Shown piece after piece: positions 49,280 to 61,074 of a stretch of 64,000 bases of DNA. The stretch spans positions 20,669 through 84,668 of IMG/VR virus record IMGVR_UViG_3300031746_000007; one strand, 5' to 3'. A program made the position numbers and the translations under genes. Source of the DNA: a virus. Positions within the stretch are counted from its first letter, which is position 1. Each line of letters begins with the position of its first letter. The notes beneath the pieces are model-generated. The model was not told the origin of the DNA, ran no database searches, and worked only from the letters and a program-made list of their open reading frames with translations.

Positions 49280-49392
49280 CGGCTCACCCCACCGAAAGTT
49301 GCGTCCCGAAACCCTTGTTTGCTGGCACACCCCGGCACATTCGCCCCAAGACAAGATTTCGTTCGCCGAGTCGCGGGGTTAGCCCGGAAAAC

Positions 49393-49650
49393 GCTGTCAC
49401 ACGTTATCTACTCTAAAGAGTTTTTTCTTATACACATATTCGTGATTTCACGAGAATGTTTTTTTCCAGTACAAATCCAAACGACTTTTTCTGTGACACC
49501 CAAAAACCCTTCCAAAAAACCGAATCCATTGCACTTTTTTTCGGAAACCCCTCAAAAACGCCCGTGTGCCGACCTGTGCCGACACGCTTGGCACACCAAA
49601 AACAATTCCCAGAAAATGCCCGCGAACATTCTCACGAATGCTGTCACACG
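49393..49650. other. Candidate origin region (AT-rich gap)
   Basis: The 466-base stretch 49280-49745 has no convincing gene and is clearly AT-richer than its surroundings. It holds a perfect DnaA box TTATACACA (49428-49436), an adjacent palindrome CGTGA-TT-TCACG (49441-49452), and two copies of GCTGTCACACG (49393-49403 and 49640-49650) flanking T/A runs. It lies 2.4 kb from the replication block. Candidate replication origin. Confidence 0.5.
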
Positions 49651-49745
49651 CGACACACTCAAACGAGAACATTTCACACGCTCCTGAACATTCTTATTTG
49701 CGTGTGCCGCTGAGTCAGTGTCTACGCCAATCGCGCGTGGTCACG

Positions 49746-57253: not shown

Positions 57254-57777
57254 CAGGCTACCGGTGTGTCATGGCTGATCCCCCCTGGTTTGAGACCGGT
57301 GGGGGCAAGATCAAGCGAGGTGCGGATCGACACTACGGTCTGATGAAGCACCCCGAGATCCTCACGCTCATGCACTCGGTGCTCGACGGCAAGCTCGACG
57401 AGAGCTGTCACCTCTGGCTTTGGGCGACCGACAACCATCTTCTCGAGGCGATCTACGTGATGCAGGGGCTCGGGTTCCGGCTCATCCGCACAATGTGTTG
57501 GGTGAAGATGCGCGAGGGCAAGTTGCAGATCGGGCTCGGGCAGTACATGCGCGGCTCGCACGAGTCGTGCCTCTTCGGGGTTCGCGGGCCGACGTGCAAG
57601 CCTCCGACCTCGCAGCGGCAGCCGTCCGTCGTGCTCGCGGCGCGTCGACTGCACTCGCAGAAGCCTGACGAAGCCTATCGGGCGATCGAGTCGACGTCGC
57701 CTGGCCCACGGCTCGAGATGTTCGCGCGCTACGAGCGCCCGGGGTGGGACCGCTGGGGCAATGAGGCGCCGACATGA
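57250..57777 (+). CDS. MT-A70 family adenine methyltransferase
   Basis: 175 aa, ATG 57250 overlapping the helicase stop (ATGA). Catalytic DPPW in CVMADPPWFETGG, then HYGLMKHPEILTLM, LWLWATDNHLLEAI, and RTMCWVKMREGK, the family pattern; C-terminal PGPRLEMFARYERPGWDRWG. Should make N6-methyladenine in DNA, perhaps against host restriction or as a timing mark. No restriction partner is encoded nearby. Confidence 0.85.
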   Translation: MTGYRCVMADPPWFETGGGKIKRGADRHYGLMKHPEILTLMHSVLDGKLDESCHLWLWATDNHLLEAIYVMQGLGFRLIRTMCWVKMREGKLQIGLGQYMRGSHESCLFGVRGPTCKPPTSQRQPSVVLAARRLHSQKPDEAYRAIESTSPGPRLEMFARYERPGWDRWGNEAPT

Positions 57778-59318
57778 GCGGGCCCGAGATCTGGCTTTCC
57801 CCGTCGCAAGTCGCGACGAAGCGCCGGTGCTTTCGATGCTGGGGGTATCAGTACATCCTCGGGTTCAAGCCGCCGCAGACCGGCGACCAGCAATTCGGCA
57901 TCGACGGGCACCTCATCGTGCAGAGGTATCTCGGGCAGGGGATCCAACCGCCGAACGACGACGTCGGCAGGACCGCGCTGCAAGGCATCGAGCGCGGCTT
58001 CCTGCCGGCGCCCGGTCCGGGGCTGCACCTCGAGCACAAGATCAAGGCGCAGATGGCGCAGGGGTTCGTGCTGAACGGGGTCGTCGACCTCATCAATGCT
58101 CGCGACCCTATCCTGCACGTGCTCGACCACAAATTCGTGAAGAGCCTGAAGTACGCGAAGGAGCCGGCCGACGCGCTCGACGACCCGCAGAGCGTCATCT
58201 ACTGCGCCGTCGCGCTGTCGATGCGACCGGCAGCTGAGATCGACTGGTCGTGGGTGTACTACGCAGCGAAGGGCAAGGAGCGACCGCGCATCCCTTGCGG
58301 CGCGCGCAAGGTCACGCGTCGAATGACGCCGGCCGACCTCGAGCCCGGATGGCAGAAGGTGCTCGCCGACTGCAAGGAGATGGTCGACGCGAAGCGCGCG
58401 GGCACGCGACCCGAAGAGCTGCCGCACAACCCGCTCGCGTGCGACGACTACAACGGTTGTCCGTGGCGCGAGATCTGCCCGGTCGACCACGGCAAGCGGC
58501 TGAGCATGATGATCGCCTCCGCGCCGATGCCGGGCGAAAACATCTTGACACACAGTGCCAGTATATCATACAACCCGGGCTCGAGCCAGCCCGATCACGA
58601 GGAGGATGACGTGGGACTACTTGACGATCTGAAAGCAGGCATGCCGCAGGCACCGCAACCGGCCGCCGCACCGCAGTCGATGCCGGCAGGGCTTCCGGGC
58701 CCGGGGACTGTGAATCCGCCCGAAGGTCCGACGACAGCCGCCGCACCGGTTCCGCAGCCGGCGCAGACCACGGCACAGATCCCGCTCTTCAACGGGCAGA
58801 CTGCCGCACCGCCGTCGCCGCAAGTTCTCGCCGGACAGCCGACGATGTTCCAGAGCATGCCGATCGCATCGCCGCCGGTCGCACCCGCAGCCTACATCCC
58901 GCCGCCGGCGCCGCAGCCTGCCCCGCCGCCCCCGGCGCCGCCGCAGCAAGTCGTGCTCGCGATCGGCACGCCGATGCCGCCCTCGATCCCGAGTCGCAGC
59001 GGTCAACCGTTGCACGGTTTCATTGTGCTCATCGACTGCCTCAAGGCCAAAGGCGAGCAAGGCACGCAGCTGATCGACGCACTCAAGCCGATCTGCCAAT
59101 GGCTCGAGCAACAGTACAAGGTCGGGCACTGGTCGGCGATCTCCTACAACCCGCACGGGGCTCCGGGCTCGGCGTTCTTGGCGAAGGCGTTCGACGACTG
59201 GTGCCAGGGCACGAAGCCGACCGGCACCATGCTCGTCGACTCGTCGACGGCGGAGGCGCGCGCGGTCATGGAGGTGCTGCTCTCGCGAGCCGACGTCGTG
59301 ATCCGAGGCATTCGCTAG
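57774..59318 (+). CDS. RecB/Cas4-like nuclease fused to Pro-rich C-terminal domain
   Basis: 514 aa, ATG 57774 overlapping the upstream stop. Residues 1-250: PD-(D/E)XK nuclease of the Cas4/AddB type, with GVVDLINARD, LHVLDHKFV (catalytic Asp and D-x-K-like) and cysteines KRRCFRC plus CDDYNGCPWREIC that could hold a 4Fe-4S cluster. Residues about 260-280 are encoded by promoter and ribosome-site sequence. Residues 280-400 are Pro/Gln/Ala-rich and 400-514 a distinct globular domain (LHGFIVLIDCLKAKGEQGTQ; LLSRADVVIRGIR). The second part has its own start at 58611, so this looks like two genes joined by loss of a stop. Confidence 0.7.
   Translation: MSGPEIWLSPSQVATKRRCFRCWGYQYILGFKPPQTGDQQFGIDGHLIVQRYLGQGIQPPNDDVGRTALQGIERGFLPAPGPGLHLEHKIKAQMAQGFVLNGVVDLINARDPILHVLDHKFVKSLKYAKEPADALDDPQSVIYCAVALSMRPAAEIDWSWVYYAAKGKERPRIPCGARKVTRRMTPADLEPGWQKVLADCKEMVDAKRAGTRPEELPHNPLACDDYNGCPWREICPVDHGKRLSMMIASAPMPGENILTHSASISYNPGSSQPDHEEDDVGLLDDLKAGMPQAPQPAAAPQSMPAGLPGPGTVNPPEGPTTAAAPVPQPAQTTAQIPLFNGQTAAPPSPQVLAGQPTMFQSMPIASPPVAPAAYIPPPAPQPAPPPPAPPQQVVLAIGTPMPPSIPSRSGQPLHGFIVLIDCLKAKGEQGTQLIDALKPICQWLEQQYKVGHWSAISYNPHGAPGSAFLAKAFDDWCQGTKPTGTMLVDSSTAEARAVMEVLLSRADVVIRGIR
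58545..58574 (+). promoter_or_regulatory. Promoter inside the nuclease fusion gene
   Basis: TTGACA (58545-58550), 18-base spacer, TACAAC (58569-58574), 37 bases before the GTG at 58611, which has GAGGAGG 5 bases upstream. Located entirely within an open reading frame. Confidence 0.5.
58611..59318 (+). CDS. Internal start: Pro-rich C-terminal protein
   Basis: 235 aa from GTG 58611 in the same frame as the nuclease. Starts GLLDDLKAGMPQAPQPAAAP; low-complexity Pro/Gln/Ala region to about residue 125, then a helical domain with ALKPICQWLEQQYKVGHWSA and GAPGSAFLAKAFDDWCQG. No recognised family. Its own promoter and ribosome site suggest it is also made alone. Confidence 0.5.
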   Translation: MGLLDDLKAGMPQAPQPAAAPQSMPAGLPGPGTVNPPEGPTTAAAPVPQPAQTTAQIPLFNGQTAAPPSPQVLAGQPTMFQSMPIASPPVAPAAYIPPPAPQPAPPPPAPPQQVVLAIGTPMPPSIPSRSGQPLHGFIVLIDCLKAKGEQGTQLIDALKPICQWLEQQYKVGHWSAISYNPHGAPGSAFLAKAFDDWCQGTKPTGTMLVDSSTAEARAVMEVLLSRADVVIRGIR

Positions 59319-59325
59319 GTCAAGG

Positions 59326-61074
59326 ATGCTCGCACCGATGACACAAGGACCCCTGCTCGGCATGGATCAACTGATCGCGGATGCGGTCGGCATGACCATC
59401 CCGCCGAACAGCAAGCTCGGGAAGCTCATCCGAGAAGGCGGGGTCGTGCGCTCGGTCGAGTTTCGCAGGATCGCCGCCCTCCCCCGGCGCGATTGGGAGA
59501 AGGATCCGCAGCTCGAGGAGTTGCGGATCCTTCTGACCCAACATCTTCGCCGGCCGGGCGGGACAATGGAGCTGAAGGCGAACCAGGCTGCCGCTCTCCG
59601 GGACCTCGCCGATCACGGCGGGCTCTTCGGGCCGCAAGCGGTCGGGGCGGGCAAGACGTTGATCACGCTGCTCGCTCCGGTCGTGCTGCAAGCTCAGCGA
59701 CCGTTGCTGCTCGTTCCGGCGAGCGTTCGCGACCAGACACTGCGCAAGGTGATGCCGCAAATGCGTAAGCACTGGCGTTTGCACCCGATGCTCCGGGTCG
59801 AGAGCTACACCGCACTCTCGCTCGAGAAGAACGCCAACCTCCTCGAGAACTACGCGCCCGACCTCATCCTCGCCGACGAGTGTCACTGCCTGGCGGGGCG
59901 CACGAGCGGGCGCACGAAGCGCGTTCGCCGCTACGTCGACGCGCACCCCGAGACGCGGTTCCTGGCAGTGTCGGGCACGGTCGCGAATCGCACGCTGCTC
60001 GCCTATGCCGAGATCGTCTACTGGTGCCTCAAGGGCAACAGCCCGCTACCGACGAACTGGCAGGAGTTGCAGGACTGGGCTCGAGCGCTCGACGAAGACG
60101 TTCCCGAAGACAAGCGGCTGCCGCCGGGCGCGCTCGCGTTGTTCTGCACGGAGCCGGGCGAGACGGTTCGCCACGGGTTCCGCCGGCGACTGTCGGAGAC
60201 GCAAGGCATCGTCGCGACTCGAGACGGCGAGCTAGGGACGTCGCTTCGCCTGCACAAGCGGGAGATCGACGCGCCGCCGCACGTGCACGCGATGATCGCG
60301 AAGCTCCGGCGCGATTGGGAGACGCCGAACGGCGACCTCATCGTCGAAGCGGTCGAGGTCTGGCGTCACGCTCGAGAGTTGGCGCTCGGGTTCTGGTACC
60401 GGTGGGATCCGCCGGCTCCGCACGATTGGATGGAAGCGCGCAAGGCGTGGAATCAGCACGTGCGCGAGACGCTCAAGAACAACCGCCGCGGGCTCGACAC
60501 TCCGCTACAGGTGTGGATGGAATGCGAGCGCAACCCGGTGCCGCTGAAGGTGTGGCGCGATTGGAAGGAGATCAAGGACTCGTTCGAACCGCGCACCGTC
60601 GCGGTCTGGGAGTCGAACTACATGCTCCGCGATGCGGCGGAGTGGCTGCAAGACGGCGAGAACGGCGGGGGCATTGCGTGGGTCGAGCACGTCGTTTTCG
60701 GCGAGCGGCTTGCTGCCGTCGCCGGCGTCCCCTACTTCGGCGGGGGCGAGAAGGCGTCGCACGACATCCTCGACGCGACCGGTCCGTGCGTCGCGTCGAT
60801 CGCGGCGCACTCGACGGGCAAGAACCTCGTGCAGTGGAATCGCAACCTCGTCACGTGTCCACCGACAGCGGGCAAGACGTGGGAGCAAATGATGGGGCGC
60901 ACGCACCGGCAGGGGCAGCTCGCCGACGAGGTCGAGAACTGGGTCTATCAACAGACCGACGAATTCCGCGCCGCGTTGTCGCAGGCGATGCGAGACGCGC
61001 GCTACTTGCGAGACACGCTCGGCGGAGCGCAGCGACTGCTCTACGCCGACGTGACGTTCGACGTTGAAGAGTAA
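59326..61074 (+). CDS. SNF2/DEAD-like helicase
   Basis: 582 aa, start 59326 (ATG 59338 also possible; only a weak AAGG precedes). Motif I PQAVGAGKTLITLL, Ia LLLVPASVRDQT, II LILADECHCLAG (DECH), III FLAVSGTVANR, and C-terminal motifs IASIAAHSTGKNLVQW-like (residues about 485-500) and MMGRTHRQGQL (VI). This is a superfamily 2, SNF2-like ATPase, common in phages as a recombination or replication remodelling factor. No nuclease domain. Confidence 0.8.
   Translation: MLAPMTQGPLLGMDQLIADAVGMTIPPNSKLGKLIREGGVVRSVEFRRIAALPRRDWEKDPQLEELRILLTQHLRRPGGTMELKANQAAALRDLADHGGLFGPQAVGAGKTLITLLAPVVLQAQRPLLLVPASVRDQTLRKVMPQMRKHWRLHPMLRVESYTALSLEKNANLLENYAPDLILADECHCLAGRTSGRTKRVRRYVDAHPETRFLAVSGTVANRTLLAYAEIVYWCLKGNSPLPTNWQELQDWARALDEDVPEDKRLPPGALALFCTEPGETVRHGFRRRLSETQGIVATRDGELGTSLRLHKREIDAPPHVHAMIAKLRRDWETPNGDLIVEAVEVWRHARELALGFWYRWDPPAPHDWMEARKAWNQHVRETLKNNRRGLDTPLQVWMECERNPVPLKVWRDWKEIKDSFEPRTVAVWESNYMLRDAAEWLQDGENGGGIAWVEHVVFGERLAAVAGVPYFGGGEKASHDILDATGPCVASIAAHSTGKNLVQWNRNLVTCPPTAGKTWEQMMGRTHRQGQLADEVENWVYQQTDEFRAALSQAMRDARYLRDTLGGAQRLLYADVTFDVEE

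What the first reader, a model, noticed from the sequence alone, without database searches (positions are those of the whole stretch)
57774..59318. Nuclease gene fused to the next gene through a translated promoter
Residues about 260-280 of the fused protein are encoded by a TTGACA/TACAAC promoter and a GAGGAGG ribosome site that precede an in-frame GTG. Two genes appear joined by loss of a stop, with the second still able to be made alone. Alternatively the two-product design is functional.
Basis: seen in the sequence. Interest (0 to 1): 0.6.

Follow-up and report, generated by a model that had tools for sequence, protein, structure and literature searches.

The report
Phage nuclease gene with nested second product
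A virus of bacteria carries a DNA-cutting enzyme gene whose back half can very probably also be made as a separate protein from a hidden start signal inside the gene, and about sixty distantly related viruses keep the same arrangement, so it is a maintained design and not an accidental fusion.

Summary
The 514-aa frame (57774-59318) is real: a Cas4/RecB-type PD-(D/E)XK nuclease (residues 1-249), a disordered linker, a short helix motif, a Pro-rich tail and a small α/β domain without known relatives. At residue 280 an in-frame GTG follows a near-perfect ribosome site (GAGGAGG). I found 67 homologous viral loci beside the neighbouring SNF2 gene. All but one are fused as here, at about 27% median nuclease identity, so the fusion is ancestral and not a recent stop loss. 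In 60 of 63 distinct loci an in-frame start (51 ATG, 8 GTG, 1 TTG) sits at the matching place, before a conserved helix motif (LLxxLKARK). The ribosome-site energy there is far stronger than at other in-frame ATG/GTG codons of the same genes (83% vs 27% at or below -5 kcal/mol). The one split relative (L015) starts its separate second gene in this junction. The promoter is weak, absent from relatives and probably incidental. Best reading: one gene, two products (nuclease-X and X alone), like endolysin LysIME-EF1, T7 gene 4 and Cas8b/Cas11b. The kind is known; its use in a phage Fe-S nuclease with an unknown C-terminal domain appears undescribed. Neither product has been observed.

The parts
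57774..59318 (+). fused ORF, 514 aa: nuclease-X long product
   Evidence: 66 of 67 relatives fused in frame
57774..58520 (+). PD-(D/E)XK nuclease domain of Cas4/RecB type with four conserved Cys (C19, C223, C229, C235) and H46, D105, D118-x-K120, Q139-x3-Y143
   Evidence: PF12705 E 4.6e-15; invariant or nearly invariant in 42 aligned relatives; ordered in AF2 model; fold matches to Cas4 and RecE
58545..58574 (+). promoter-like TTGACA-18-TACAAC, translated as residues 258-267; probably incidental
58599..58605 (+). internal ribosome site GAGGAGG (translated as part of residues 276-278)
   Evidence: -11.8 kcal/mol, rank 0.012; SD-like core in 54 of 60 loci, in all three codon frames
58611..59318 (+). 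predicted nested short product X, 235 aa, GTG start (residue 280)
   Evidence: aligned start column in 60 of 63 distinct loci: 51 ATG, 8 GTG, 1 TTG; split homologue in L015
58617..58640 (+). conserved helix motif LLDDLKAG just after the internal start (family LLxxLKARK)
   Evidence: blind motif search with Met masked; helix 283-288 in model
58641..59009 (+). Pro/Ala-rich disordered linker; holds the VNPPEG motif at 58710-58727, recurrent in the family as (V/I)NPPE
59010..59315 (+). C-terminal small alpha/beta domain (LYVDCxP ... YGKG ... VDSRT ... VVRGxR in the family)
   Evidence: pLDDT 91, pTM 0.81; no Pfam, PHROG, PDB-sequence or significant Foldseek match
59326..61074 (+). next gene, SNF2-type helicase, used to find syntenic relatives

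Best explanation
The gene encodes two in-frame products. Translation from ATG 57774 gives a 514-aa Cas4/RecB-like Fe-S nuclease tethered by a flexible linker to protein X. Translation from the internal GTG 58611, driven by GAGGAGG on the same mRNA, gives X alone (235 aa). The fusion, the internal start and its ribosome site are shown by comparison. That both proteins are made is inferred. The most likely role, also inferred, is that X assembles with the nuclease-X long form in an uneven ratio, so that one nuclease is carried by several X copies within the replication/recombination module (SNF2 helicase, DNA polymerase A, Pif1-like helicase).
For: 66 of 67 loci fused. Internal start in 60 of 63 distinct loci. 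SD energy mean -6.9 vs -3.3 kcal/mol at 1328 other in-frame ATG/GTG (Mann-Whitney p 2.5e-19); strict core 43% vs 3.6%. The result holds with one locus per 50%-identity cluster and hand-picked starts removed (39 loci, p 1.6e-14). SD cores fall in all three codon frames (26/17/11), so DNA is conserved and not amino acids; V at the start is always GTG and L is TTG (joint chance 1.5e-5). Blind Met-masked motif search: ATG within 9 aa upstream in 42 of 63 vs 16% at random. The spacer is 7-48 aa long and always in frame; the other frames are open in only about 43%. L015 encodes X as a separate gene with an ATG in this junction, before the same helix motif. The junction is predicted disordered and ordered structure resumes at the motif helix. 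About ten loci keep the internal start although their C-terminus differs.
Against: No protein, ribosome-profiling or transcript data. Against synonymous shuffles that keep the amino acids the SD signal is weaker (Wilcoxon p 5e-5, Fisher p 0.05), because the residues themselves (KE, GG, EE) spell AGGAG. Two distinct loci (L013, L059) lack a clear internal start and some have weak SDs (L039, L050, L061). The assembly role rests on analogy only. Start choice was by reading the motif, which controls only in part.
Confidence: 0.85

Rival explanations
1. Recent fusion: two genes joined in this phage by loss of a stop, with the second gene's promoter and ribosome site left behind as a relic.
For: Promoter-like and SD sequences lie inside the frame. 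The spacer here (44 aa) is among the longest. Stops occur nearby in the other two frames, one at 58607.
Against: 66 of 67 loci at about 27% identity are fused; the split locus is nested inside a fused clade. A relic SD would not persist across such divergence.
Confidence: 0.03
2. Only the long fusion is made; the internal Met and purine-rich stretch are conserved as protein (a linker and helix cap) and not as a start.
For: SD excess over synonymous shuffles is modest; the helix motif is conserved as protein.
Against: Met is replaced only by GTG-coded Val or TTG-coded Leu, and SD cores lie in all three codon frames. The spacer is disordered and hypervariable. L015 starts a separate gene there.
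Confidence: 0.1
3. A sequencing or assembly error hides the nuclease stop codon.
For: A one-base shift would end the nuclease at TGA 58607, just before the GTG.
Against: Third-position GC stays high across the junction (0.80, then 0.63), and the same fusion is seen in dozens of independently assembled contigs.
Confidence: 0.02
4. The second product is made from its own transcript, started at the internal TTGACA/TACAAC promoter.
For: TTGACA is exact and is the only one of 28 such sites in the window with a 4-of-6 partner.
Against: The -10 lacks the last T, the spacer is 18, the strict scan does not list it, and no promoter signal exists at the junction in relatives. A host sigma factor match is unknown.
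Confidence: 0.1

Closest known systems
Endolysin LysIME-EF1 of an Enterococcus phage (PMC7098653); also Lys170 and CTP1L (PMC4777826)
   Same: One phage gene; N-terminal catalytic domain plus C-terminal domain; internal AAGGAGA site and in-frame start give the C-terminal part alone, which assembles with the full-length enzyme (1 full-length + 3 C-terminal domains). The published comparative argument is the same: start and ribosome site conserved in 36 homologues.
   Different: Lysis enzyme with a cell-wall binding domain; product and structure shown by experiment. Here the enzyme is a Cas4-like DNA nuclease, the C-terminal domain is unknown and nothing has been shown at the bench.
Phage T7 gene 4 (63-kDa primase-helicase and 56-kDa helicase; PMC9198812)
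   Same: Replication gene of a phage; internal in-frame start (codon 64) gives a shorter form lacking the N-terminal function.
   Different: Only the zinc-binding domain is left out; here the whole nuclease is left out. Unrelated proteins.
Cas8b/Cas11b internal translation (PMC11899642)
   Same: The C-terminal part of a large subunit is also made alone from an internal start and is needed at higher copy number in the complex.
   Different: CRISPR interference complex; unrelated sequence.
Cas4-like pfam12705 nucleases of phages (PMC5704561)
   Same: Same nuclease family (PF12705) with catalytic and four Cys residues; known in phages of Mycobacteria, Bacillus, Thermus and others.
   Different: Passages read describe fusions to Cas1 or UvrD helicase, none to a domain like X and none with an internal start.

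Membership tests
Cas4/RecB-type PD-(D/E)XK nuclease (PF12705) | profile match above curated cut-off | tested here: met
   56.7 bits vs cut-off 22
Cas4/RecB-type PD-(D/E)XK nuclease (PF12705) | catalytic H, D, D-x-K and QxxxY motifs | tested here: met
   H46, D105, D118, K120, Y143 invariant and Q139 in at least 90% of 42 sequences
Cas4/RecB-type PD-(D/E)XK nuclease (PF12705) | four cysteines for an Fe-S cluster | tested here: met
   C19, C223, C229, C235 invariant; the cluster itself not testable
Cas4/RecB-type PD-(D/E)XK nuclease (PF12705) | Cas4-like fold | tested here: met
   Foldseek: Cas4 SSO0001 E 2.7e-5, RecE 3.1e-5, MGME1 1e-4
Two-product gene with internal in-frame start | in-frame start with SD inside the longer ORF | tested here: met
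   GTG 58611, SD -11.8 kcal/mol
Two-product gene with internal in-frame start | start and SD conserved in homologues beyond chance | tested here: met
Two-product gene with internal in-frame start | both products detected; short one lost when the internal start is changed | not testable with these tools
   needs expression
Two-product gene with internal in-frame start | short and long products assemble together | not testable with these tools
   needs purified proteins; no multimer prediction available
Known family of the C-terminal domain | match to any Pfam, PHROG or PDB family | tested here: not met
   no meaningful match in 49 members; best Foldseek E 0.07 viral and 0.13 PDB

The most novel reading that the evidence does not exclude
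A widespread, undescribed class of phage DNA-processing enzyme: a Cas4-like nuclease built as a mixed assembly with free copies of its own C-terminal protein X, whose helix motif, NPPE motif and new alpha/beta domain recruit it to the phage SNF2 helicase and replication proteins, the ratio being set by the internal ribosome site.
Probability: 0.4. Interest if true: 0.65.

Novelty: new variant of a known kind. Interest (0 to 1): 0.5.

Why it matters
Gene finders call this a single fused protein and would miss the second product in every relative. If true, a replication nuclease joins endolysins, T7 gene 4 and Cas8b among enzymes that set subunit ratio with an internal start, and a small domain of unknown fold and role gains dozens of examples and a testable partner (SNF2 helicase). 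It also shows how a suspected 'gene fusion by stop loss' can be told from a maintained nested gene by comparing start codons and ribosome sites across relatives.

Tried and rejected
Single-protein scans of viral contigs with the nuclease, the SNF2 gene, the polymerase and P0002, and scans with alignments A1 and A2, found no relatives; only the cropped SNF2 C-terminus alignment A3 worked. Promoter repeats elsewhere in the window: none. Promoter conservation in relatives: rejected. Domain identity for X by Pfam, PHROGs, NCBIfam, PDB sequence and Foldseek: nothing significant. AT-hook-like motifs in the linker: only 15 of 67, not in this phage.

Full report
What is there. The window is bases 20669-84668 of a virus record of 84,668 bases. 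The frame 57774-59318 codes for 514 aa without a stop. Residues 93-236 match PDDEXK_1 (PF12705, E 4.6e-15). Sequence at the junction: TTGACA 58545-58550, TACAAC 58569-58574, GAGGAGG 58599-58605, GTG 58611 (residue 280). The neighbours are an MT-A70 methyltransferase overlapping at ATGA, a Pif1-like helicase, an SNF2-type helicase just downstream and a family A DNA polymerase.

Relatives. Direct searches gave one distant annotated relative, MW202816.1 from a spring-water virome. Its nuclease is 27% identical, is fused in the same way (596 aa), and ends AVIIRGVR against DVVIRGIR here. The last 64 residues of the SNF2 protein, aligned with MW202816.1, retrieved 80 viral loci with flanks. In those loci 67 nuclease ORFs were found, counting the window and MW202816.1. 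All but one continue in frame for more than 100 residues past the last nuclease cysteine. Median pairwise nuclease identity among 39 representatives is 27%. The fusion is therefore old. The exception, L015, lies in a seven-member clade with the window in the SNF2 tree (SH-aLRT 99), so its split is most simply derived.

The internal start. Past the last cysteine comes a spacer of 7-48 residues that does not align, then a conserved helix motif, typically M-S-x-L-L-x-x-L-K-A-R-K. Taking the start codon before this motif gave 60 loci of 63 distinct ones: 51 ATG, 8 GTG, 1 TTG. Val at that place is GTG in all 8 cases and Leu is TTG; given codon use in the same ORFs the joint chance is 1.5e-5. SD duplex energy averages -6.9 kcal/mol against -3.3 at 1328 other in-frame ATG/GTG codons of the same ORFs (p 2.5e-19); a strict core is present in 43% against 3.6%. 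With hand-picked cases removed and one locus per 50%-identity cluster, 39 loci still give p 1.6e-14. The SD cores fall in all three codon frames with 5-14 nt between the GG of the core and the start, so the DNA signal and not a peptide is kept. A motif search with Met masked, blind to DNA, finds the same motif; an ATG lies within 9 residues upstream in 42 of 63 against 16% for random anchors. A weaker point: against synonymous shuffles the excess is only modest (Wilcoxon 5e-5, Fisher 0.05), since the residues used can themselves spell AGGAG.

The split locus. In L015 the nuclease ends with TGA overlapping the ATG of a separate X gene (ATGA, 2178-2181), preceded by GGGAG; that X reads MNEKTMTLKERLQAIK...LVNPPA, so its ATG falls in the same junction, a few residues before the helix motif. 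This shows X as an independent gene product in nature, with one caution: the split depends on the length of a run of seven A.

Architecture. In the AF2 model of the window protein (42 sequences) residues 6-249 and 416-511 are ordered, 255-282 and 289-410 largely disordered, and a short helix forms at 283-288 right after the internal start. The nuclease has H46, D105, D118, K120, Y143, C19, C223, C229 and C235 invariant and Q139 nearly so, and its fold matches Cas4, RecE, MGME1 and EXO5. The C-terminal domain alone is predicted with pLDDT 91 and has no significant match. About ten loci have a different or shortened C-terminus yet keep the internal start and helix motif, so these look like the core of X.

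The promoter. TTGACA is exact, but TACAAC lacks the last T and the spacer is 18. It is not listed by the stricter scan. In relatives the junction has no better promoter score than other parts of the ORF (median rank 0.61). It may be a weak promoter private to this phage or chance; among 28 TTGACA sites it alone has a 4-of-6 partner.

Mechanism. Shown by comparison: fusion, internal start, ribosome site. Inferred: both proteins are made from one mRNA. Inferred by analogy: X and nuclease-X assemble with more X than nuclease, as LysIME-EF1 does with its wall-binding domain, Cas8b with Cas11b and T7 gene 4 with its short form. The neighbours point to DNA replication or recombination. That L015 may lack the covalent link suggests the long form is not strictly needed if X binds the nuclease anyway.

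Verdict. The stop-loss reading is rejected; the two-product reading is well supported by comparison but unproven at the bench. The principle is known; I found no description of it for this nuclease family in the papers searched, a limited library.

Noticed in passing
L015:2171-2181: The split relative has a canonical A_AAA_AAA heptamer in the nuclease frame right before its TGA; a -1 slip there would enter the X frame at its ATG, so even this locus might make some nuclease-X fusion. Alternatively the A-run is a sequencing error.
   Followed up: partly
window 49300-49720: AT-rich stretch (down to 23% GC in 30 bases) with several GTGTGCCG/TGTGCCGAC/GGCACACC-like copies and hairpins in a 65% GC genome, near where AT skew changes sign; perhaps an origin or a divergent control region.
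   Followed up: no
related loci, linker of X (L009, L026, L038, L050, L067 and others): 15 of 67 relatives carry an AT-hook-like GRPK/GRPR motif in the linker, suggesting DNA binding by X in those phages; the window protein has none.
   Followed up: partly
window 58710-58727 and relatives: The (V/I)NPPE motif recurs in the otherwise low-complexity linker (27 of 67 by a strict pattern); it looks like a short binding motif.
   Followed up: partly
L007, L021: In these loci the ORF carrying the nuclease is much longer (1048 and 1136 aa) with about 520 residues ahead of the nuclease, so the frame is joined upstream as well.
   Followed up: no
window 58601-58611: The out-of-frame TGA at 58607 lies four bases before the internal GTG, close to the ATGA overlap layout of the split locus L015.
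   Followed up: no
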